Below, one piece after another: positions 2 through 21,714 of a stretch of DNA of 21,714 nucleotides. Within the stretch, counting starts at the first letter, position 1. Each line of letters starts with the position of its first letter. The notes under the pieces are model-generated. The model ran no database searches and was not told the DNA's origin. It saw only the letters and a list, made by a program, of their open reading frames with translations. The position numbers and the translations under genes are program-made. Origin of the DNA: a virus; IMG/VR virus record IMGVR_UViG_3300006916_000466, positions 1-21,714 of that record, one strand, 5' to 3'.

Positions 2-376
2 TTTATGGAAGATCAACAATTTGTAAATATATTACATGTATGTAAAACTTATATAGGTTCTTTTTCTAGAGTATGGGATCATCCTTGGATATTACAAGAT
101 GCATGGGGAGTAAGAAATGATTATGGAGATTATACAAGAAATCATCGACACGGACAAAGTAATATATCAGGATTAATTTATTTAAATAGCAGCACACAAG
201 AATTAGAATTTCCAGAATTACAAACTAAAGTTAAACCTGAACCGGGAAGAGTAGTTATTTGGGATTCTTTATTAAGGCATGAATGTAAACCAAATAGATC
301 AGATATATCTAAATATTCTGTAGTGTTTAACATAGATTATCAAGTAGGTTACGAACATCAAGACTATCGATCTTGA
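2..376 (+). CDS. 2OG-Fe(II) oxygenase, 3' part (5' end outside the window)
   Basis: This is the C-terminal part of a probable Fe(II)/2-oxoglutarate-dependent oxygenase. The frame is open to the left edge, so the Met at base 5 is probably internal and the gene starts outside the window. Counting from that Met, an iron-binding HxH pair lies at H47/H49, followed by the usual ISGLIYLN strand, a PEPGRVVIWDS turn and strand, the second iron His at H92 (LLRHECKP), and a final SVVFNIDY strand. This order matches the phage 2OG-FeII_Oxy_5 type. The position that normally carries the 2OG-binding Arg reads Lys (K103), with R98 nearby, so cosubstrate binding may differ. The next gene starts 24 nt downstream. 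The substrate is unknown. The partial gene at the right edge of the window is in a compatible frame and looks like a matching N-terminal half. Confidence 0.75.
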   Translation, partial: FMEDQQFVNILHVCKTYIGSFSRVWDHPWILQDAWGVRNDYGDYTRNHRHGQSNISGLIYLNSSTQELEFPELQTKVKPEPGRVVIWDSLLRHECKPNRSDISKYSVVFNIDYQVGYEHQDYRS

Positions 377-400: not shown

Positions 401-2569
401 ATGCCATTAAAAAATGTACAAATACAGCCAGGATTTAATAAACAAACAACTGCTGTCGGTGCTGAAGGTCAGTGGACTGATGGAGATTTTGTTAGGTTTA
501 GATATGGTTTACCAGAAAAAATAGGTGGATGGGCACAGATTACAGGTCAAACTTTAGTTGGTGCAGTCCGAGAACAGCTTGTATGGGCTGATTTGGATGG
601 CAGAAGATATGCAGCTTTAGGTTCTAATAAAGCTTTATTTATTTATTATGAAAGTGCTTTTTACGATATTACACCATTGGACACTGCTATTACTGGTTGT
701 ACTTTTGGTACAACTAACGGTCTAACAGAAGTAGGTGTTAATAAAACTGCACATGGTTTAGAGGTTGGAGATTTATTTACTTTTACATCTGTAACCCCTC
801 CCGTAGGAGCAGGATATGTTGCAGCAGATTTTACCACTAATACTTTTCAAGTAGTTACCGTACCTTCAACAGATGCTTTTACAATTACTATGGCTACGGG
901 TGCTGGAACGACAGTATCTAACAGTGGATCAGCTGTAGTTAATCCTTATATAAAACCAGGGCCACTTACTCAATCTGCAGGTTATGGTTACGGAACTTCT
1001 ACTTTTGGTGGAGCTTCTGGAGTCTTAGGAAGTTTAAATGGATCTCTAAATGATGACACCGCAGGAACGGGCGGGTCAGGAACTTCAATAACGCTTGCCT
1101 CAACAAATGGCTGGCCAACGTCTGGAACTTTTAAAGTTGGAACAGAATTTATATCTTATACAGGAGTATCATCAAATGATCTTACTGGTATTACGAGAGG
1201 TGTAGCAGGAACTCGATCTGCACACTCTTCTGGTGCTACTTGTGAATACTACACTGCATGGGGAGATGCTTCATTATCTTCCACAGTTGTACTAGACTCT
1301 GCATCTTGGTCTTTAGATCATTTTGGACAAAAACTAATTGCAACTATTAAAAATGGTAAAACATTTGAATGGGATCCTCTTAATGTATCTACTGCAGCTT
1401 TAACAACAAGAGCTACTGTAATATCAGGAGCACCTACAAAATCAGTTATGTCGATTGTTTCTGAAAGAGATAGACATTTAATTATGATTGGAACAGAAAC
1501 AACTATTGGTCAAACTGCATCACAAGATAAAATGTTTATTAGATTTTCTGATCAAGAAAATATTAACGATTACACAGCTACTTCAGTAAATACCGCAGGA
1601 TCTTTAAGGCTTGATTCTGGTGTTAAGATAGTTGGTGCAGCTAAAGGAAAAGACTATATTTTAATATTAACAGATACTTCTGCATACATTATGCAGTTTG
1701 TTGGCCCACCATTTACTTTTTCTCTTAGACAAGTAGGTTCTAATTGTGGTGCAATAGGTCAACATGCAATTAAATATGTTAATGGTAAAGTATTTTGGAT
1801 GGGACAAGCAGGAGGCTTCTTTGTTTATGATGGTACAGTTAAATCATTACCTTGTTTAGTAGAAGATTTTGTATTTACATTTACAGGAAATAATGTGGTT
1901 ACAGACAATATTGGAATTAACTACACTAATGGCGAACAAGTATATGCAGGTTTAAATCATTTGTATGAAGAAATTACTTGGTTCTATCCTAAGAATGGTT
2001 CTGATGAAGTAGACAGACAAGTTACATACAACTATGCAGAGAACACTTGGCATACAGGATCTCTAGCTAGAACTTCTTGGACTGATTCTACATTATATGA
2101 CAACCCATACGCGACAGACTACGATACGACTGGTGTTCCTACGTACCCTACTATTCAAGGAGTGACAGCGGAAAACGGAGCAACAACTTATTACGCACAC
2201 GAAATAGGAACTGACCAAACAGACAATGATGGTAATGTAACACAAACTATAACTTCTTACTTGCAATCTGGTGACTTTGATTTAGATATTAATGGAGATG
2301 GTCAAATGTTTATGAGTATGAGAAGGTTTATACCTGACTTTAAAAAAATAGTTGGTAATGCTAGTATTACAATAGGTCTTAAAAGATATCCTTCCTCTAC
2401 CTCAGCATCATCACCCCTTGGGCCTTTTACAATTACAAGCACTACTGATAAGGTAGACACACGTGCAAGATCTAGATTTGCAAGTGTAAAGATAGAAAAT
2501 TTATCTAGTGGAGAGAGTTGGCGATACGGAACATTTAGAGCAGATGTACAACCAGATGGTATGAGATAA
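401..2569 (+). CDS. Head-closure/tail protein resembling P22 gp10-type stabilization proteins, with inserted beta domains
   Basis: This 722-residue virion protein probably belongs to the head-tail connector or tail. The N-terminus (MPLKNVQIQPGFNKQ, then GQWTDGDFVRFRYGLPEKIGGW) and the later ASWSLDHFGQKLIATIKNGK segment are the style of the phage stabilization/tail family typified by P22 gp10; this is from memory of the family. The core is interrupted by two Gly/Thr/Ser-rich beta segments: about residues 103-180 (with a TAHGLEVGDLFTFTS signature) and about 225-285 (SGTFKVGTEFISYTG, then LTGITRGVAGTRSAHSSGA). Similar modules recur in marine phage tail proteins. DNA for the second is GC-richer than its flank. 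The C-terminal part (residues 330-722) is a long beta-rich domain. No Shine-Dalgarno precedes the ATG, and the only other in-frame upstream ATG is closed by a stop. The next gene overlaps by 1 nt (TAATG). A tail-hub role is an alternative. Confidence 0.65.
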   Translation: MPLKNVQIQPGFNKQTTAVGAEGQWTDGDFVRFRYGLPEKIGGWAQITGQTLVGAVREQLVWADLDGRRYAALGSNKALFIYYESAFYDITPLDTAITGCTFGTTNGLTEVGVNKTAHGLEVGDLFTFTSVTPPVGAGYVAADFTTNTFQVVTVPSTDAFTITMATGAGTTVSNSGSAVVNPYIKPGPLTQSAGYGYGTSTFGGASGVLGSLNGSLNDDTAGTGGSGTSITLASTNGWPTSGTFKVGTEFISYTGVSSNDLTGITRGVAGTRSAHSSGATCEYYTAWGDASLSSTVVLDSASWSLDHFGQKLIATIKNGKTFEWDPLNVSTAALTTRATVISGAPTKSVMSIVSERDRHLIMIGTETTIGQTASQDKMFIRFSDQENINDYTATSVNTAGSLRLDSGVKIVGAAKGKDYILILTDTSAYIMQFVGPPFTFSLRQVGSNCGAIGQHAIKYVNGKVFWMGQAGGFFVYDGTVKSLPCLVEDFVFTFTGNNVVTDNIGINYTNGEQVYAGLNHLYEEITWFYPKNGSDEVDRQVTYNYAENTWHTGSLARTSWTDSTLYDNPYATDYDTTGVPTYPTIQGVTAENGATTYYAHEIGTDQTDNDGNVTQTITSYLQSGDFDLDINGDGQMFMSMRRFIPDFKKIVGNASITIGLKRYPSSTSASSPLGPFTITSTTDKVDTRARSRFASVKIENLSSGESWRYGTFRADVQPDGMR

Positions 2570-3213
2570 TGGAAGATTTATTACAAGCACAATACAATAA
2601 TCAATTAGCTAATAGTGCAGCTGAATTATTTGACCAAAGACAAAGAGAGCAAGTTAACAACTCAGCTATGGGTATAATGAAATTAGGTTTTCAAAACTCA
2701 CCAGCTATGACAGCATTAGGTGACCCTATGTCTGAATATAGTAATTTTGATGTAGGTGGCCAAACTTTTGCATATGGTGATCCTATGGCACAAGAAAAAA
2801 GTAATTTTATTGAAAAAGGTTTTTTTAATGTTAATAGAAATGCACCTGGATTTAAAGGTTCACTTGCAAGAACTGGTATTAGTGCTTTAGGTAGAGCAGC
2901 AGGATTAGGAACAATAGCTTCTTCTGCACTTGGATTTGCATTTGCACCAATAGCAGGAATAGCTAGTTTGTTTAGTGGTTTAGGTAGAAGTACATCGATT
3001 GCAGGTTATCTACAATCTAAGCGAGACGCTAAGGCTAGAAGAGATGCAGCAGCAAGAGGTGCTAGAAAACAAGGTTTAAAAGCTCTGGCAAAAACTTATC
3101 ATGAAATTGGACAAAACAGAGATGGAGGAGGTCACCCAGGAGGATCTACAGCAGCGGCTGGTGCAGCGGCTCAGGCAGCAGATGATAGTGCAGCTGGAGC
3201 AGGAGGTTACTAA
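2569..3213 (+). CDS. Gly/Ala-rich virion-associated protein
   Basis: This 214-residue protein is not recognised as a named family. It begins with a Gln/Asn-rich helical region (residues 1-35), and residues 103-140 form a Gly/Ala-rich hydrophobic stretch (SALGFAFAPIAGIASLF) that could cross or touch a membrane. A basic helix follows at 148-175 (KRDAKARRDAAARGARKQG), and the last 35 residues are a low-complexity Gly/Ala tail. Such compositions are common in phage proteins that travel with the DNA. It starts within the stop of the previous gene (TAATG) and its 3' end carries the strong Shine-Dalgarno of the next small gene. Its place between tail and small virion genes supports a structural or ejection role, but a scaffold or assembly factor cannot be excluded. 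Confidence 0.5.
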   Translation: MEDLLQAQYNNQLANSAAELFDQRQREQVNNSAMGIMKLGFQNSPAMTALGDPMSEYSNFDVGGQTFAYGDPMAQEKSNFIEKGFFNVNRNAPGFKGSLARTGISALGRAAGLGTIASSALGFAFAPIAGIASLFSGLGRSTSIAGYLQSKRDAKARRDAAARGARKQGLKALAKTYHEIGQNRDGGGHPGGSTAAAGAAAQAADDSAAGAGGY

Positions 3214-3377
3214 TGGCTAAAGTAGATATTTATGTTCCTGAACCAACACCAACTTATACTGAAGAAAATCAAAGACAAGTAGCACAAACTTTACAAACAC
3301 TTAAAGATAAGTTAAACACAAGTTATCAACACGAACTTAAAAATGAACAAAACACTTTTAACTATTTTATGTCATGA
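3213..3377 (+). CDS. Small acidic/polar protein, 54 residues
   Basis: This short gene fills what would otherwise be a gap. It starts in a TAATG junction with the previous gene and has a perfect AGGAGG at 3201-3206, six bases before the ATG. It ends in an ATGA overlap with the next gene. The product begins MAKVDIYVPEPTPTYTEENQ and then forms one amphipathic helix (about residues 17-50, RQVAQTLQTLKDKLNTSY). No membrane segment or signal peptide is present. Precise coupling at both ends and the best ribosome binding site in the neighbourhood make it a real gene. Function is unknown; a small virion or assembly protein fits the context. Confidence 0.72.
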   Translation: MAKVDIYVPEPTPTYTEENQRQVAQTLQTLKDKLNTSYQHELKNEQNTFNYFMS

Positions 3378-3709
3378 CAATAAGATACAAAAGCGAAACA
3401 TTTGATTTAACTACAACAAACATCACGACAGTTTTAACGTGTCCATCAGATGCAACTATTATAGTAAAAGCTATTCAAGCTAGTCATCAGGCTGCATCAA
3501 ATGTGGATGTTGATGCTTTTTTACAAAAATCTGGTGGGTCAGATGTAGAGATTAGTCATGCTCAACTAAATAAAAATTTTATAAACATGGTTAGTTCAAG
3601 TTTAAATATGGAAGCTAGTGATGTTTTAAAAGTGCAAGCAGATACTGCTAATCAAATTACAGGATCTGTTAGCTATGCTCTTATAGATAGATCTCAAGAG
3701 AATGGCTAA
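3374..3709 (+). CDS. Small beta-rich virion-associated protein, 111 residues
   Basis: The product is a compact, Ser/Thr/Val-rich protein with alternating beta strands (ETFDLTTTNITTVLTCPSDA, then NVDVDAFLQKSGGSDVEIS, then ITGSVSYALIDRS). Its size, composition and place among virion genes resemble small decoration or tail-accessory proteins of marine phages, but I cannot assign a family. It overlaps its neighbour upstream by 4 nt (ATGA) and has no Shine-Dalgarno of its own, so it is probably translated by coupling. Its 3' end overlaps the 42-residue basic protein gene by 8 nt. There are no catalytic motifs. Confidence 0.55.
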   Translation: MTIRYKSETFDLTTTNITTVLTCPSDATIIVKAIQASHQAASNVDVDAFLQKSGGSDVEISHAQLNKNFINMVSSSLNMEASDVLKVQADTANQITGSVSYALIDRSQENG

Positions 3710-3830
3710 ACAAAAATTTACAAACTTTGTACCAAGACCACAACCTAGGAAGAGACCTAGACGTCACACCAAAAGTCTTAACAAAAGTAAGAAAAGATGT
3801 TTTAAAAAATACAATCGGCAAGGACGTTAG
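3702..3830 (+). CDS. Very basic 42-residue protein, conserved type in marine phages
   Basis: This tiny gene lies between 111- and 215-residue genes and overlaps both (8 nt and 1 nt). The product, beginning MAKQKFTNFVPRPQPRKRPR, has about 18 Lys or Arg among 42 residues and ends in KKYNRQGR. I recall very similar 40-45-residue proteins in cyanophage and pelagiphage genomes, with a conserved basic RPRRH core and a C-terminal KKYxGQGR-like end; this is recollection, not a search. The charge suggests nucleic-acid binding, for example DNA condensation in the capsid or RNA binding, but no experiment is known to me. The start lacks a spaced Shine-Dalgarno and probably depends on coupling. A stop at 3828-3830 overlaps the GTG of the next gene. 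Confidence 0.72.
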   Translation: MAKQKFTNFVPRPQPRKRPRRHTKSLNKSKKRCFKKYNRQGR

Positions 3831-4477
3831 TGCATATTACTAATTTTCAAAACAACAATATTAATAATCCTTTTAATCCACATTATTCATATCATATATA
3901 TGAAGATGATTTACCTTTAGATACAGAAGTATTAAGTGAGTTTTTATTACACAAAGAAAAACAACTTATAAAAGAACATCCACCACATGATAATGGTGGT
4001 ACAGGATTAAGTGAAAATAGTGTTACAAGTAGATTTATATATTACAACTTACTCGAGTTTCCTGAGTGTGGCTTTCTTAAAAATCATATAAGAAAAGCAC
4101 ACGATACATTTTGTAAGTTTTTAGAAGTAGATATACACGAATCATATTATGTTCAATGTTGGTTTAATGTAATGAGAAAAGGCGAAGAAATTAAATTACA
4201 TAATCATGCAGAGGATAATACAGGTTATTTGAGTGGGCATATATGTGTAAAAGTTGCAGATACTACAACAGATTACGAGGTACCTTATTTTAAAACATCG
4301 TATAGATGTAAAAATACACCAGGAAAAATAACTTTATTCCCAGGTTGGCTTTCACATAAAGTAAGCACTATAGAAAAGGACGATGTAAGAATAACCATAG
4401 CGTTTGACATAAGAACTCAAAGCTCTTATATTCAACACGTTAACGATAAATTAAAAAATCATTGGATTAAAATATGA
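3830..4477 (+). CDS. 2OG-Fe(II) oxygenase
   Basis: This complete 215-residue oxygenase opens the modification cassette. The iron-binding HxH is H124/H126 (KLHNHAEDN), followed by the LSGHI strand (134-138), the PGKITLFPGWLSHKV segment with the distal iron His H176, and the 2OG-binding Arg R187 in DDVRITIAFDI. The whole facial triad and the Arg are in place, so it should be active, unlike the less certain copy at the left edge. The layout is that of the phage 2OG-FeII_Oxy_5 family, whose members hydroxylate unknown substrates. The start is GTG at 3830, supported by AAGGA at 3820-3824 and a 1-nt overlap with the previous stop. It shares ATGA with the next gene. The target may be a protein side chain or a small metabolite. 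Confidence 0.82.
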   Translation: MHITNFQNNNINNPFNPHYSYHIYEDDLPLDTEVLSEFLLHKEKQLIKEHPPHDNGGTGLSENSVTSRFIYYNLLEFPECGFLKNHIRKAHDTFCKFLEVDIHESYYVQCWFNVMRKGEEIKLHNHAEDNTGYLSGHICVKVADTTTDYEVPYFKTSYRCKNTPGKITLFPGWLSHKVSTIEKDDVRITIAFDIRTQSSYIQHVNDKLKNHWIKI

Positions 4478-4674
4478 GTGATGAACTAATAAAAATACCT
4501 GCTAAAGCAGTAGAAATAGTAAAACATAAAAGAACTGGTAAGGTATATGCAGATAAAGCTGAATTTGATGCAGATGTTGCAGACCCTAATACAGATACAA
4601 CCGCAGAGGACTTCAGACAAGACTTAGAAATAACAGTTGCAAAACTTTCTATGTTTGGTAAAACCAAAACATAA
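4474..4674 (+). CDS. Small protein, 66 residues, function unknown
   Basis: This small gene sits between the oxygenase and the glycosyltransferase, starting in an ATGA overlap and ending in a TAATG overlap. The product has a central HKRTGKVYADKAEFDADVAD segment, a short beta-turn-beta with an acidic helix, and a C-terminal DLEITVAKLSMFGKT segment. The Lys/Thr-Gly-Lys-x-Tyr pattern followed by an acidic stretch is familiar from small proteins of marine phages that often sit beside structural genes, but I know no function. No membrane segment, signal peptide or metal motif is seen. The minus-strand frame over the same bases is a shadow. Retention between two enzymes suggests co-expression with the cassette. 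Confidence 0.65.
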   Translation: MSDELIKIPAKAVEIVKHKRTGKVYADKAEFDADVADPNTDTTAEDFRQDLEITVAKLSMFGKTKT

Positions 4675-5606
4675 TGAATCCTAGAGGTGGTACCGAGTTG
4701 CAAATGGAAATGCTTTACAAGCATTGTCCTAAAGAGCTGTTAGATAAAACACAAATCTGTACTTCTATACCTGGTAAAGTACCTATTGATCCAAATAAAC
4801 TAAATATACTTTGGCAAAAAAATTCATATGACCAATCAAACTTACAAGAATTTTTTAACAATCCTTTTAAACATTCTGATTATGATTGGTATGTATTTAA
4901 TTCACATTGGAATTATGAAAAATTTAGAATGGCTTTTAATATTCCACAAGAAAAATCAATAGTAATTAAAAACGGTTGTACAAATTTTCCAGAAAGAAAA
5001 CCTTATATAAAAGGCCAACCAATTAAAATAATACATCATTCAACTCCTTGGAGAGGATTAAACGTACTGTTAGCAGCAATGCAACTTGTAAAGAATCCAT
5101 TAATTACTTTAGATGTTTACAGCAGCACAAAAGTATATGGTAGTGAGTTTAGTCAAGCACATGAAGCTACTTATCAGCCTTTATTTGATCAGGCTAAATC
5201 TTTACCTAATGTAAATTACATAGGTTATGTACCTAATGAACAAATATTAGAAAAAATTACTGACTATCAAATGTTTGTATACCCAAGTATATTTGAAGAA
5301 ACATTTTGTATATCAGCTTTAGAATGTATGTCCGCAGGACTACATGTTATAACTACAAACTTTGGAGCTTTATTTGAAACTTGCTCTGAATGGCCAGTAT
5401 ATGTCAATTATGATTCCAATGTAGAAAACTTAGCAAGAGCAACTGCACATGCAATAGAAACAGCTGCTACATATCTACACGAACAACCTGTACAAGATCA
5501 TCTAGCAGAACAACAAAAATTTTTTAAAAAGTTTTATAGTTGGAAGAAAAAAGGTTCAGAGTGGGAAAACTTTTTAAAAGGTGCAATCCATGCAAAAGGT
5601 CTATAA
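4674..5606 (+). CDS. GT-B glycosyltransferase (GT4-like)
   Basis: This 310-residue enzyme is a retaining GT-B-fold glycosyltransferase of the group-1/GT4 kind. It starts with a GGTE motif (residues 5-8), normally the acceptor-side glycine loop, so it has a very short N-terminal domain; an in-frame stop at 4659-4661 rules out a longer start. Residues 76-104 (NSHWNYEKFR, then IVIKNG) form the interdomain link, STPWRGLNVLL (123-133) is the donor-site start, and E209-x7-E217 (EETFCISALE) is the EX7E donor-binding motif, followed by SAGLHVITTNFGA. It should transfer a sugar from a nucleotide sugar to an unknown acceptor. It overlaps the next gene by 17 nt. No signal or membrane segment is visible, so it acts in the cytoplasm. 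Confidence 0.85.
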   Translation: MNPRGGTELQMEMLYKHCPKELLDKTQICTSIPGKVPIDPNKLNILWQKNSYDQSNLQEFFNNPFKHSDYDWYVFNSHWNYEKFRMAFNIPQEKSIVIKNGCTNFPERKPYIKGQPIKIIHHSTPWRGLNVLLAAMQLVKNPLITLDVYSSTKVYGSEFSQAHEATYQPLFDQAKSLPNVNYIGYVPNEQILEKITDYQMFVYPSIFEETFCISALECMSAGLHVITTNFGALFETCSEWPVYVNYDSNVENLARATAHAIETAATYLHEQPVQDHLAEQQKFFKKFYSWKKKGSEWENFLKGAIHAKGL

Positions 5607-6036
5607 ACAATTTAGTGACGAAAAACTAGATTTCAATCAACTAACTAACTTAATATCTGAAGATCATTTTAAGTCTAAACAATCTAGTAAATGGCTAGAG
5701 AACTTTGTACTCCAAGGCACAATAGTCATAAAAAATGTGGGTGCACATCCTGCTTTTAATTCTTTAATAAATAAAATTATTAATCAATTTAAACTAAAAT
5801 TTAAATCAATGGATATAGATTTATATGTAGGGTTTACTCAAGGTGCAACATCTAATATACATCGAGACGACTATGATGTTTATCTATATAATTTGTATGG
5901 AAATGTTATTTATAACATTAATAAAGAAAACTATATGTTAGAAGAAAAAGATTTAATTACAATTAAACAAGGAGACATACATCAAGCAATTGGTTTATCT
6001 CCTAGAATAACATTATCGTTAGGAATTTATGATTAA
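5590..6036 (+). CDS. Cupin_4/JmjC-like oxygenase, 148 residues
   Basis: This is probably an Fe(II)-dependent oxygenase of the cupin/JmjC type. The segment with H91-x-D93, then YDVYLYNLYGNVIYNI, resembles the Cupin_4 (ribosomal oxygenase) signature HxD..DVF..Q..G....W, and the second iron ligand is H131 in the QGDIHQAIG turn, followed by the SLGIYD end strand. Known Cupin_4 enzymes hydroxylate ribosomal proteins, but their substrates cannot be transferred here. It is much shorter than those enzymes and lacks their C-terminal domain. I choose ATG 5590 over GTG 5581 because AAGGTG (5578-5583) lies six bases before it. It overlaps the upstream gene by 17 nt and the downstream one by 8 nt. A non-enzymatic cupin is possible. 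Confidence 0.6.
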   Translation: MQKVYKQFSDEKLDFNQLTNLISEDHFKSKQSSKWLENFVLQGTIVIKNVGAHPAFNSLINKIINQFKLKFKSMDIDLYVGFTQGATSNIHRDDYDVYLYNLYGNVIYNINKENYMLEEKDLITIKQGDIHQAIGLSPRITLSLGIYD

Positions 6037-6850
6037 AGATATAGGACAAAAGGTTAATAGAGAAGGTGCGGCTAAACCTATTTGGATAGGTAAATCAAGT
6101 GTACCACATATATATGTAGCTACGCCTGTTCACGATCAAGTTAGTATTCATTTCACACAATCTATACTAGACTTTCAAAAGTATTGTTTTCAAAACAAAT
6201 TAAAAGTAACTTTTCAATTAGTTAAATCATCATTAGTAACCCAAGGCAGAAACTTATGTGTTGCAGATTTTTTAACTTCCGGTGCTGACTATTTATTATT
6301 TATTGATTCAGATATTGAATTTGAACCAGGCACCATTCAAGCTATGATAGACAAAGACAAAGAGCTTATATCAGCTCCATACCCATTGAAAAATATTAAT
6401 TGGAAAAAAGCATTTGAAAAGATTCAAGCAGGAGATGTTAAAACATTAGAAGATCTTTCTAACGCAATCTATCAATATCCACTTAGAGTTCCAAATGAAC
6501 ACGATATAAGTATGCATGAAGGGATAATAGAAGTAACTCATGGTGCTACTGGTTGTATGTTAATAAAACGTAGTGTTTTTGATAAATTAATGAAAGCTTA
6601 TCCTGATAAAACTATTGTTCAAAAAACAGTTATGAATGGTGAACTAGTTGATAAAGATAACCTATGGAATTTCTTTGATACTTTATACGATTCAAAGACT
6701 AAAATGTATATGGGTGAGGACTTTGCTTTCTGCAAATTATGGAAAGATATAGGTGGTAAATGCTATAGTTACGTACTAGACCCAATTACCCACGTAGGCG
6801 AATTTAAATATAGTGGAAGGTTCGCTGATGAGTTGATAATCAATAAGTAA
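6029..6850 (+). CDS. GT-A glycosyltransferase (family 2-like)
   Basis: This 273-residue protein is a GT-A-fold nucleotide-sugar transferase. It contains IYVATPVHD near residues 28-36 (first Rossmann strand), a VTQGRN loop (70-75), the metal-binding D93-S-D95 in LLFIDSDIEFEP, a HGATGCMLIKR segment (171-181), and the GED at 229-231 (YMGEDFAFCKLW), where the catalytic base normally sits. H255 (ITHVGEFKYSG) is a candidate extra metal ligand. It ends the cassette: only a 47-nt gap with promoter and ribosome-binding signals follows, and its start overlaps the previous gene by 8 nt. With the GT-B enzyme it could build a disaccharide or glycosylate a hydroxylated residue; the acceptor is unknown. No membrane segment is seen. 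Confidence 0.85.
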   Translation: MIKDIGQKVNREGAAKPIWIGKSSVPHIYVATPVHDQVSIHFTQSILDFQKYCFQNKLKVTFQLVKSSLVTQGRNLCVADFLTSGADYLLFIDSDIEFEPGTIQAMIDKDKELISAPYPLKNINWKKAFEKIQAGDVKTLEDLSNAIYQYPLRVPNEHDISMHEGIIEVTHGATGCMLIKRSVFDKLMKAYPDKTIVQKTVMNGELVDKDNLWNFFDTLYDSKTKMYMGEDFAFCKLWKDIGGKCYSYVLDPITHVGEFKYSGRFADELIINK

Positions 6851-6861
6851 AATGGTATTAT
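6833..6861 (+). promoter_or_regulatory. Sigma70-type promoter for the second virion module
   Basis: TTGATA at 6833-6838 (5 of 6 to the -35 consensus) and TATTAT at 6856-6861 (5 of 6 to the -10 consensus) are separated by exactly 17 bases, and TG at 6853-6854 makes an extended -10. Transcription would start near 6868, leaving a short leader with AAGGAG (6881-6886) before the ATG at 6898. It sits in one of the few gaps, at the boundary between the modification cassette and the next virion module. The call assumes a host-type sigma70; a phage RNA polymerase or host regulator could also be involved. Confidence 0.55.
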
Positions 6862-6880
6862 TTACCATTTAAAGATCTTT
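6850..6880. repeat. Inverted repeat and palindrome over the promoter and leader
   Basis: AAATGGTA (6850-6857) and TACCATTT (6863-6870) are a perfect 8-bp inverted repeat around a TTATT loop, and AAAGATCTTT (6871-6880) directly after it is a perfect palindrome. The first arm overlaps the -10 region and the second spans the predicted start site, so it could be an operator, an RNA hairpin that affects leader stability, or a weak terminator for the upstream cassette. The stem has only two GC pairs per arm and there is no U-run, so a classical terminator is unlikely. Confidence 0.45.
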
Positions 6881-6897: not shown

Positions 6898-7905
6898 ATG
6901 TTACAATTTTTACCCTATGCACTTGCCGCCTACGGAGGATACAGAGGTTATAGAGATGCTAAGAAATCTGGGGCTTCAGGAATAGGAAGATTATTATCGG
7001 CTGGTACAGGTGCCGCTATGGGCTACTATGGAGGTAAAATGATACCAGGTGTATCTACATCTGGATTTACTCCATTTACATCAACAGCTTTTGGTCAGTC
7101 ACTTCCTTTTGTTGGTGCAACACAATCAGCAGCAGCACAAACTGGTGGATTATCTGCAATGCAACAAGCACAAATTGCAAGTAGCGGAGCAGATCCAGGA
7201 TTAGCATTATCTCAAATGCCAGCAGGAGGTGAAGGAAACCCAACTGATCCAAGAAGTTTTTTACAAAAAATGTTTTATAAAAAAGATGCACCATCAGAAG
7301 TAGATCCATTAAAATTATTTGCAGGTGTATCTGGACTAAGTTATGCATCAGGTGCTTTTGAACAAGGCCCAGTAGATATGTATCAACCTACATACAATAT
7401 AGCTTACAAAGAATTTGCAGAGAAAAGACCTAACTTTAAATATATAGATCCACAAACTGGTGATGAAAAAAATTACGAAAAAGTTTACATACCTGAAGGT
7501 AATGTTGAGGGCAATCCATATCAAATGGTTAAATCTAGATTAAGAGAAGGTGGGTTAGCTGAAATAAAAAAATTTAATGAGGGTGGTATTAATTATTTAC
7601 CATCAAAAACATCTCATGACGAGTATGATTCTAACAATTATGTTAGAGCAACTGGTTATGTAGAGGACGGATCCGGAACAGGAGACAAAGACGAGGATAC
7701 GATGTTAGCTCAATTAGCAGACGGAGAGTTTGTAACAAGAGCAGACGGTGTATTAGGTGCTGGTTTAATAGCTGGAGCAAATCCTACAAGCATAAAAGAT
7801 ATGCGAGAAAAAGGTGCGGCTTACTTCTATGAACAGCAAAAAAGATATAAAAGAATTTTTGACTTAATAGGAGAAGCACGTGGCACGAGCAGCAAAAAAA
7901 ATTAA
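6898..7905 (+). CDS. Virion-associated protein with a conserved DEDTMLAQLADGEFV motif
   Basis: This 335-residue protein has a Gly-rich, weakly hydrophobic N-terminus (residues 1-60), an Ala/Gln-rich middle (75-110) and an acidic C-terminal third. Residues 214-230 (LREGGLAEIKKFNEGG) and the 265-279 block (DEDTMLAQLADGEFV, followed by a TRADGVLGAG end) match motifs I recognise in many uncultured marine phage virion proteins, where a DGxGTxTSDSIPAxLSDGEFV-like form is common. Function is unproven; it may be an ejection or tail protein. It has the best ribosome binding site in the window (AAGGAG at 6881-6886, 11 bases before the ATG) and a promoter upstream, so it heads a transcription unit. It overlaps the following gene by 26 nt. 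Confidence 0.6.
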   Translation: MLQFLPYALAAYGGYRGYRDAKKSGASGIGRLLSAGTGAAMGYYGGKMIPGVSTSGFTPFTSTAFGQSLPFVGATQSAAAQTGGLSAMQQAQIASSGADPGLALSQMPAGGEGNPTDPRSFLQKMFYKKDAPSEVDPLKLFAGVSGLSYASGAFEQGPVDMYQPTYNIAYKEFAEKRPNFKYIDPQTGDEKNYEKVYIPEGNVEGNPYQMVKSRLREGGLAEIKKFNEGGINYLPSKTSHDEYDSNNYVRATGYVEDGSGTGDKDEDTMLAQLADGEFVTRADGVLGAGLIAGANPTSIKDMREKGAAYFYEQQKRYKRIFDLIGEARGTSSKKN

Positions 7906-21332: not shown

Positions 21333-21531
21333 AAAATTAATAATACAAGCACTAGAAGATAAATATAATGCACAAATATCTAAAGCCGAAGCTACTATAA
21401 AAATATATTTTGAAAAACCAGTAGCTATTGGTGAACATCCACAACACGTTGACGAATGCGATAAATTAATAAATGAAATAGCTCAAGCACAAGAAAATTT
21501 AAAAATTATAAGAGACTTTGATTATGATTGA
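21325..21531 (+). CDS. Small helical protein, 68 residues, function unknown
   Basis: The product is highly helical, with two amphipathic segments: residues 2-29 (MFRKLIIQALEDKYNAQISK) and 43-64 (DECDKLINEIAQAQENLKII), joined by a short Pro-containing loop that includes GEHPQH. Similar short proteins occur in marine phages next to replication genes, but I cannot name a family. There are no metal or nuclease motifs despite the two His in the loop. The gene starts 8 nt inside the helicase and ends 8 nt inside the next gene, so it is part of the same translation-coupled unit. Confidence 0.65.
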   Translation: MFRKLIIQALEDKYNAQISKAEATIKIYFEKPVAIGEHPQHVDECDKLINEIAQAQENLKIIRDFDYD

Positions 21532-21714
21532 AAAGTATATAATGAAAGGCAATATTATACCATCTAGCATATGCGATATGCTAATAGAAAGGTCAAAAGA
21601 ATTAGAGTGGGAAAAACATTTATGGCATAATAATAATAGAAATGAGTTTCATGACAGAGATACAGAGGGTGTTATCTGTTCTTATATGCCTGATGATTTA
21701 TGTGGATTGCTGCA
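21524..21714 (+). CDS. 5' part of a gene, possible 2OG oxygenase N-terminal half
   Basis: The frame is open to the right edge, giving 63 residues and two extra bases. The product starts MIEKYIMKGNIIPSSICDML and continues with a SKELEWEKHLWHNN segment and a RNEFHDRDTEGV segment. The early helix, then a WxxHxW pattern and an RDTE turn resemble the N-terminal part of phage 2OG-Fe(II) oxygenases, but no iron ligands are inside the visible part, so the family is a guess. The start codon lies inside the previous gene's last codons (8-nt overlap). Joined in frame to the truncated gene at the left edge, it gives about 187 residues with the HxH near residue 112, a normal length for that family. Confidence 0.45.
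   Translation, partial: MIEKYIMKGNIIPSSICDMLIERSKELEWEKHLWHNNNRNEFHDRDTEGVICSYMPDDLCGLL

What the first reader, a model, noticed from the sequence alone, without database searches (positions are those of the whole stretch)
3830..6850. Oxygenase/glycosyltransferase cassette inside the virion genes
Four enzymes and one small protein form one tightly overlapping block between virion genes: a 2OG-Fe(II) oxygenase (full HxH, H, R set), a 66-residue protein, a GT-B glycosyltransferase with EX7E, a Cupin_4-like oxygenase with HxD and H, and a GT-A glycosyltransferase with DxD and GED. Overlaps are 1, 4, 1, 17 and 8 nt, so they are expressed together. Two oxygenases of different folds alternating with two glycosyltransferases of different folds suggests hydroxylation followed by glycosylation, as in hydroxylysine glycosylation, but of a phage or host target. 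A late-expressed virion protein such as the tail protein is one candidate; host ribosomal proteins (Cupin_4 precedent) or surface glycans are others.
Basis: partly seen in the sequence, partly recalled or inferred. Interest (0 to 1): 0.65.

Follow-up and report, generated by a model that had tools for sequence, protein, structure and literature searches.

The report
Phage glycosylation cassette with swappable oxygenases
A virus of the abundant ocean bacterium SAR11 carries two conserved sugar-adding enzymes among its particle genes, with oxygen-inserting enzymes swapped in and out around them, probably to decorate the virus's own surface or tail proteins.

Summary
The block is real: a 2OG-Fe(II) oxygenase, a 66-aa protein, a GT-B transferase, a minimal cupin/JmjC-like oxygenase and a GT-A transferase, all with catalytic motifs, in an HTVC023P-type pelagiphage. 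It is not one unit of four enzymes, however. The core is P66–GT-B–GT-A: GT-A directly follows GT-B in 46 of 46 dereplicated loci with room. Of relatives picked by another gene, 25 of 25 with 5 kb downstream carry both. The oxygenases are exchangeable cargo: the window's exact pattern occurs only in its own clade (3 of 46). Still, 23 of 46 loci hold some oxygenase-fold gene in the interval; one GT-less clade has nothing inserted (0 of 71). P66 also occurs without GTs. In unrelated T4-like marine phages the same GT families plus a 2OG-like protein sit between tail-fibre-type genes. No thymidylate-synthase/dCMP-hydroxymethylase gene was found in 13 records (12 with the GTs), which argues against the usual DNA base glycosylation. 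Best reading: a glycosylation pair for a virion protein, with swappable oxygenases. Substrate, sugar and any hydroxylate-then-glycosylate order remain unproven.

The parts
3702..3830 (+). 42-aa strongly basic ORF, start of the overlapping run; equivalent of HTVC023P gp75
   Evidence: translation; HTVC023P gp75 sequence; no family hit
3830..4477 (+). OXY1: 2OG-Fe(II) oxygenase (PF13759, phrog_81), H124/H126/H176/R187; accessory, present only in the window's clade
4474..4674 (+). P66: 66-aa conserved protein of unknown function, upstream of GT-B in 49/50 dereplicated loci; homologue also in GT-less phages
4674..5606 (+). GT-B fold glycosyltransferase (PF00534, GT4-like; phrog_2170), EX7E at 209-217
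5581..6036 (+). CUP: minimal cupin/JmjC-like oxygenase (phrog_4992), H94-x-D96 and H134; ATG start at 5590 gives the 17-nt overlap; accessory
6029..6850 (+). GT-A fold glycosyltransferase (phrog_1574), DxD 93-95, GED 229-231; best solved relative STIV A197
5..376 (+). C-terminal part of another 2OG-Fe(II) oxygenase (PF13759); full length 183 aa in L008; last of an oxygenase run between the tail-fibre genes and the phrog_3287 virion gene
401..2569 (+). virion protein (phrog_3287; 'stabilization protein' in relatives), left anchor of the variable locus
3213..3377 (+). p54, conserved small protein used as anchor
3374..3709 (+). p111, conserved protein upstream of P66 in GT-bearing and GT-less phages
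6898..7905 (+). p335, right anchor of the cassette with its own strong ribosome-binding site (AAGGAG)

Best explanation
The block is a protein-glycosylation module in the virion gene region. GT-B and GT-A act one after the other (order unknown) to build a short glycan on a phage virion protein, most likely a tail or fibre surface protein made from the same part of the genome. The oxygenases around and between them (here OXY1 and CUP) are exchangeable tailoring enzymes: they hydroxylate side chains of the same class of protein, either creating the acceptor hydroxyl or adding further chemical variety. In other clades the same slots take other oxygenases, a carbamoyltransferase or a further GT. 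The likely benefit is variation of the particle surface. Shown here: presence, motifs, predicted folds for CUP and GT-A, conserved GT pairing, cargo turnover, and fibre-gene context in unrelated phages. Inferred: late expression, substrate, sugar, order of reactions and benefit.
For: GT-A directly follows GT-B in 46/46 dereplicated loci, and 25/25 relatives chosen by the phrog_3287 gene carry both. GT-A and GT-B pairwise distances correlate at 0.83 across 35 loci. Both GT families recur together in other phages, adjacent or far apart: 15 of 18 phage records with GT-B also have GT-A. In L003 and L090-L094 (T4-like marine phages) GT-A, GT-B and a DUF6445/phrog_1644 2OG-like protein lie among collagen-like or YFGGG-repeat fibre-type genes. 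23/46 loci hold an oxygenase-fold ORF in the interval, against no insertion before P66 in 71 loci of one GT-less clade. The GT-A fold search gives STIV A197 first, then LH3, COLGALT1, GalNAc-Ts and mimivirus R699, largely protein or virion glycosyltransferases. The cassette lies among tail/ejection genes, and 0 of 8 records have PF00303. Precedents: mycobacteriophage capsid/tail glycosylation (PMC12363180); mimivirus L230, lysyl hydroxylase plus GT (PMC9614988).
Against: No substrate, sugar or modified residue has been seen. Similarity of GT-A to protein glycosyltransferases is at fold-core level only (TM about 0.37-0.45 on the query). In DLP6 and OC the GT-A relative lies in the replication gene region, which fits other roles. 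Oxygenases are also numerous in a phage without the GTs, so the oxygenase link may be to tail genes rather than to glycosylation. The GT-less comparison comes from one close clade. Late expression was not verified: the HTVC027P transcriptome gene table was not available.
Confidence: 0.5

Rival explanations
1. The GTs (and perhaps oxygenases) modify phage DNA bases: an oxygenase makes a hydroxylated base and the GTs glycosylate it, protecting against restriction.
For: TET dioxygenase plus GT and hydroxymethylase plus GT systems are known in phages (established knowledge; arabinosylation in RB69 and a pentose in Thanatos, listed). Some HTVC023P-type clades encode thymidylate synthase and aG/PT-PPlase hypermodification genes (PMC9599517). 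The GT-A relative in DLP6 and OC lies in the replication cluster. One GT-bearing contig has a C5-cytosine methylase.
Against: No PF00303 (thymidylate synthase/dCMP hydroxymethylase) in HTVC023P, HTVC027P or five GT-bearing IMG/VR contigs, nor in DLP6, OC, AG-345-L05 and two T4-like contigs (the control rang). C5-methylase in only 1 of 8. No Tet_JBP (but its control did not ring). OXY1 is PF13759 and CUP is cupin/JmjC-like, not TET/JBP. The cassette is among tail genes, not replication genes.
Confidence: 0.12
2. The GTs modify a host surface glycan (LPS or other) to change receptors or block superinfection.
For: Phage GTs of this kind are known from other phages, and GTs in pelagimyophages have been read as lipopolysaccharide modification (PMC9599517). 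Polyisoprenyl GtrB structures appear in the GT-A fold list.
Against: No flippase or other membrane partner was recognised in the block. The genes sit with tail/ejection genes and, in T4-like relatives, among fibre-type genes. The accompanying oxygenases have no obvious place in this reading.
Confidence: 0.15
3. The oxygenases and the GTs are functionally independent: the GT pair glycosylates one target, while the oxygenases act on other virion or host proteins and merely share a permissive insertion site.
For: GT pair without an oxygenase in the block in 23/46 loci and in HTVC023P/027P. Oxygenase runs upstream next to fibre genes occur with GTs (L008, HTVC023P) and without them (023Pt_psg01). 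Oxygenase identity turns over while the GTs stay.
Against: Inserted genes are strongly biased to oxygenases and sugar-tailoring enzymes. A 2OG-like gene follows the GT pair in all six T4-like loci. The insertions are absent from the same site in the GT-less clade.
Confidence: 0.2
4. P66 is the glycan acceptor or a dedicated carrier/adaptor for the GT pair.
For: Upstream of GT-B in 49/50 loci, about 70% identical, with a conserved PNTDTT stretch.
Against: A P66 homologue sits beside p111 in a clade without the GTs: none of 80 loci fetched by it carries a GT. P66 distances correlate only weakly with GT-B (0.40).
Confidence: 0.1

Closest known systems
Phage-encoded virion glycosylation in mycobacteriophages Che8, Corndog and Myrna (Freeman et al. 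2023, as cited in PMC12363180 and PMC11256854)
   Same: Phage-encoded glycosyltransferases that add sugars to the phage's own virion proteins.
   Different: Different hosts and GT arrangement; no oxygenase cargo is described in the passages read; here no sugar has been shown. Sequence homology to those GTs was not tested.
Mimivirus L230, bifunctional lysyl hydroxylase and glycosyltransferase (PMC9614988)
   Same: Oxygenase plus GT acting on a virus-encoded protein; the GT-A fold is close to collagen glycosyltransferases at core level.
   Different: L230 is one fused protein acting on collagen-like proteins; here separate genes, two GTs, several unrelated oxygenase families, and no Gly-X-Y gene seen next to the window's cassette.
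STIV A197, essential archaeal-virus GT-A, proposed to glycosylate the major capsid protein (PMC10551542)
   Same: Best solved relative of GT-A by profile (E 0.0035) and by fold (E 2.7e-7).
   Different: 15% identity; its acceptor is also unproven; no GT-B partner known to me.
Cupin_4 ribosomal oxygenases (YcfD, MINA53, NO66)
   Same: CUP model matches their double-stranded beta-helix core and keeps HxD and H.
   Different: CUP is 151 aa, has no room for the dimerisation and winged-helix domains, and is below the Pfam cut-off.
HTVC023P-type pelagiphage auxiliary genes reported by PMC9599517
   Same: The group's glycosyltransferases and eight non-orthologous 2OG oxygenases were already listed there.
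   Different: The GT pair as a fixed core with exchangeable cargo, and the parallel with fibre loci of T4-like phages, are not described in the sections read.

Membership tests
2OG-Fe(II) oxygenase PF13759 (OXY1) | Score above Pfam gathering cut-off | tested here: met
   47.3 bits against 27
2OG-Fe(II) oxygenase PF13759 (OXY1) | Iron triad and 2OG-binding arginine | tested here: met
   H124, H126, H176, R187
GT-B glycosyltransferase group 1 (PF00534) | Score above cut-off and EX7E motif | tested here: met
   50.6 bits against 26.4; E209/E217 invariant in 20 aligned sequences, 83/83
GT-A glycosyltransferase | Score above a Pfam GT-A family cut-off | tested here: not met
   Anp1 23.1 against 28.8; Glycos_transf_2 17.3 against 23.3
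GT-A glycosyltransferase | GT-A fold with DxD | tested here: met
   AlphaFold2 pLDDT 83.4; 2c0n E 2.7e-7; DxD 72/72
Cupin_4 / ribosomal oxygenase (PF08007) | Catalytic double-stranded beta-helix with HxD...H | tested here: met
   Model pLDDT 77, best matches YcfD, MINA53, NO66; H94, D96, H134
Cupin_4 / ribosomal oxygenase (PF08007) | Dimerisation and C-terminal winged-helix domains; family cut-off | tested here: not met
   151 aa, single domain; 17.1 bits against 22
L230-type hydroxylase/glycosyltransferase | Both activities in one polypeptide | tested here: not met
   Separate genes
L230-type hydroxylase/glycosyltransferase | Hydroxylysine made and then glycosylated | not testable with these tools
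   Needs biochemistry or mass spectrometry
Phage virion-protein glycosylation | Phage-encoded GTs linked to virion genes | tested here: met
Phage virion-protein glycosylation | Sugar found on virion protein | not testable with these tools
   Needs mass spectrometry of virions
Phage pyrimidine hypermodification plus GT | dCMP hydroxymethylase/thymidylate-synthase homologue | tested here: not met
   0/8 and 0/5 records, control positive; the window's own genome is incomplete
Phage pyrimidine hypermodification plus GT | TET/JBP dioxygenase | tested here: inconclusive
   0/8, but the control rang nowhere

The most novel reading that the evidence does not exclude
A modular phage system for protein surface chemistry: a fixed GT-B/GT-A pair builds a glycan on fibre or tail proteins, and an interchangeable set of hydroxylases (2OG, DUF6445, cupin/JmjC) plus carbamoyl- and other transferases varies the acceptor residue or the glycan. 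It would occur in unrelated marine phage groups and would be a bacterial-virus counterpart of hydroxylysine glycosylation.
Probability: 0.25. Interest if true: 0.8.

Novelty: new variant of a known kind. Interest (0 to 1): 0.55.

Why it matters
SAR11 phages are among the most abundant viruses in the sea, and many carry 2OG oxygenases whose targets are unknown. If these enzymes decorate virion proteins together with a conserved GT pair, it would give a function to a large class of unexplained marine phage genes and show that phages diversify their particle surface by hydroxylation and glycosylation. Two cultured phages, HTVC023P and HTVC027P, carry the GT pair, so mass spectrometry of their virions would test it directly.

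Tried and rejected
DNA hypermodification: searched PF00303, Tet_JBP and PF00145 in 8 records and PF00303 in 5 more; disfavoured, not excluded. P66 as obligate GT partner: rejected, because a GT-less clade has a homologue at the same place. Four-enzyme unit conserved across relatives: rejected. The phage-collection search with CUP found only two weak records, so CUP's wider history is open. The P66 search there gave only HTVC023P plus chance-level cyanophage matches. Cellular GT-A relatives (about 25-33% identity, Burkholderiales, Acinetobacter and others) stand alone with no GT-B, so they give no substrate hint. The promoter/terminator scan gave no more sites than shuffled sequence. The HTVC027P transcriptome paper does not name the GT genes' time class in its main text. 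Profile comparison of the 'ferrochelatase' family with the 2OG families was inconclusive.
Full report
What is there. The window belongs to a relative of the HTVC023P-type pelagiphages, podoviruses that infect SAR11. Between p111 (3374-3709) and p335 (6898-7905) lie, on one strand, a 42-aa basic ORF (3702-3830), OXY1 (3830-4477), P66 (4474-4674), GT-B (4674-5606), CUP (5581-6036) and GT-A (6029-6850). OXY1 and GT-B pass Pfam cut-offs; CUP and GT-A do not, but match PHROG families and have supporting predicted folds.

What is conserved. Eighty IMG/VR loci were fetched by GT-B. After dereplication (50 loci), GT-A directly follows GT-B in 46 of 46 with room, and P66 precedes GT-B in 49 of 50. To avoid choosing by the GT itself, 80 loci were fetched by the phrog_3287 virion gene: all 25 with at least 5 kb downstream carry both GTs. 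DxD and ED are kept in 72 of 72 and EX7E in 83 of 83. GT-A and GT-B evolve together (distance correlation 0.83), P66 less so.

What turns over. The pattern OXY1 before P66 and CUP between the GTs is found only in the window's clade (L008, L012, L013 among the 46). In other loci the slots hold other 2OG oxygenases, DUF6445 proteins, other cupin/JmjC-like proteins, a NodU-type carbamoyltransferase (Pfam 3.8e-55), a Gly_transf_sug-like protein, or virion proteins. Twenty-three of 46 hold at least one oxygenase-fold ORF; 16 hold nothing extra. HTVC023P and HTVC027P have the GT pair without an oxygenase inside the block. In a GT-less clade (like 023Pt_psg01) 80 loci were fetched by its P66 homologue; none carries a GT, 79 have p111 beside it, and in the 71 that span the site the p54-P66 gap is 272-353 nt, that is, only p111. 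The contrast 23/46 against 0/71 is large, but the GT-less loci are one close clade, so they do not count as independent.

Other phages. In INPHARED, 15 of 18 records with GT-B also have GT-A, in pelagiphages, AG-345-L05 and T4-superfamily phages of alphaproteobacteria and Stenotrophomonas, sometimes far apart in the genome. Many of these records are near relatives, so this is a few lineages, not 15 events. In AG-345-L05 and five IMG/VR loci, GT-A, GT-B (fused in L091 and L092 to an FkbM-like methyltransferase region) and a DUF6445/phrog_1644 protein are adjacent and lie among repeat-rich fibre-type genes; in L092 the upstream gene is collagen-like and hits many tail-fibre PHROGs. This is the strongest pointer to a fibre-type substrate. 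A SAR11 single-cell assembly (AG-919-D18) also holds the GT pair.

Folds. The CUP model (pLDDT 77) best matches YcfD, MINA53 and NO66 over its single domain. The GT-A model (pLDDT 83) best matches STIV A197, then LH3, COLGALT1, GalNAc-transferases, mimivirus R699 and, lower down, a PBCV-1 capsid GT. TM-scores of about 0.3-0.45 on the query mean a shared core only, not shared specificity.

Mechanism. Most likely the GT pair adds a short glycan to a virion protein, and the oxygenases act on the same class of protein. Shown: gene content, conservation, context. Inferred: timing, substrate, sugar, order. The co-occurrence data do not require hydroxylation before glycosylation, since the pair persists without neighbouring oxygenases, although both complete GT-bearing pelagiphage genomes looked at have oxygenases elsewhere. 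The window's own phage probably has four oxygenase-like genes (one of them unverified) between tail-fibre-like genes and the phrog_3287 gene, the last of which is the ORF at the window's left edge (L008).

Rivals. DNA hypermodification lacks its usual hydroxymethylase in 13 records searched, 12 of them with the GTs, though PMC9599517 reports such genes in other clades and the Tet_JBP control did not ring. Host surface glycan modification cannot be excluded. Independence of oxygenases and GTs is a serious alternative.

Known or new. Phage virion glycosylation by phage GTs is known (PMC12363180, PMC11256854), hydroxylase-plus-GT modification of a viral protein is known in mimivirus (PMC9614988), and the GTs and 2OG oxygenases of this phage group were listed as auxiliary genes (PMC9599517). 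What I did not find described in the papers read is the fixed GT pair with exchangeable oxygenase and tailoring cargo, shared with fibre loci of unrelated phages. The paper library is open-access only, so absence there is weak evidence of novelty.

Noticed in passing
3702-3830: 42-aa strongly basic ORF overlapping OXY1's start by 1 nt; matches HTVC023P gp75 in position and sequence; function unknown.
   Followed up: partly
L008:3263-5703 (upstream of the window in a near-identical contig): Run of oxygenase-like genes (P4H-like PF13640, a 'ferrochelatase'-labelled protein, DUF6445, PF13759) between tail-fibre-like genes and the phrog_3287 gene.
   Followed up: partly
L062:3447-3977; L070:6083-6574; L014:9430-10008: Some PHROG labels look wrong: members of phrog_274 ('DNA endonuclease V') hit 2OG-Fe(II) Pfam models, and members of phrog_1644 ('minor coat protein') hit DUF6445 with an HxD...H-like pattern.
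   Followed up: partly
L001:2340-2957; L008:3856-4416: Protein labelled ferrochelatase in pelagiphages has an HxD...H pattern and no Pfam hit; profile comparison with 2OG families was inconclusive, so the label is unverified.
   Followed up: partly
L015:7949-9451; also L047, L048: NodU/CmcH-type carbamoyltransferase inserted in the GT locus, in L015 and L048 with a further GT-like gene.
   Followed up: partly
L003, L090-L094: T4-like phage loci with GT-A, GT-B and a DUF6445-like protein among long repeat fibre-type genes; GT-B fused to an FkbM-type methyltransferase in L091/L092.
   Followed up: yes
6851-6869: AATGGTA-TTATT-TACCATT inverted repeat just after GT-A, before p335's ribosome-binding site.
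   Followed up: no
21518-21712: Start of a further ORF with a weak match to 2OG family phrog_61 (E 0.015), cut by the window end.
   Followed up: no
L259 (AG-919-D18 SAR11 single-cell assembly): 47.8-kb contig with the GT pair plus P4H and DUF6445 genes, probably a phage in an infected SAR11 cell.
   Followed up: partly
L270-L300: GT-A relatives (about 24-33% identity) in Burkholderiales, Acinetobacter and other bacterial contigs, standing alone with no GT-B nearby.
   Followed up: partly
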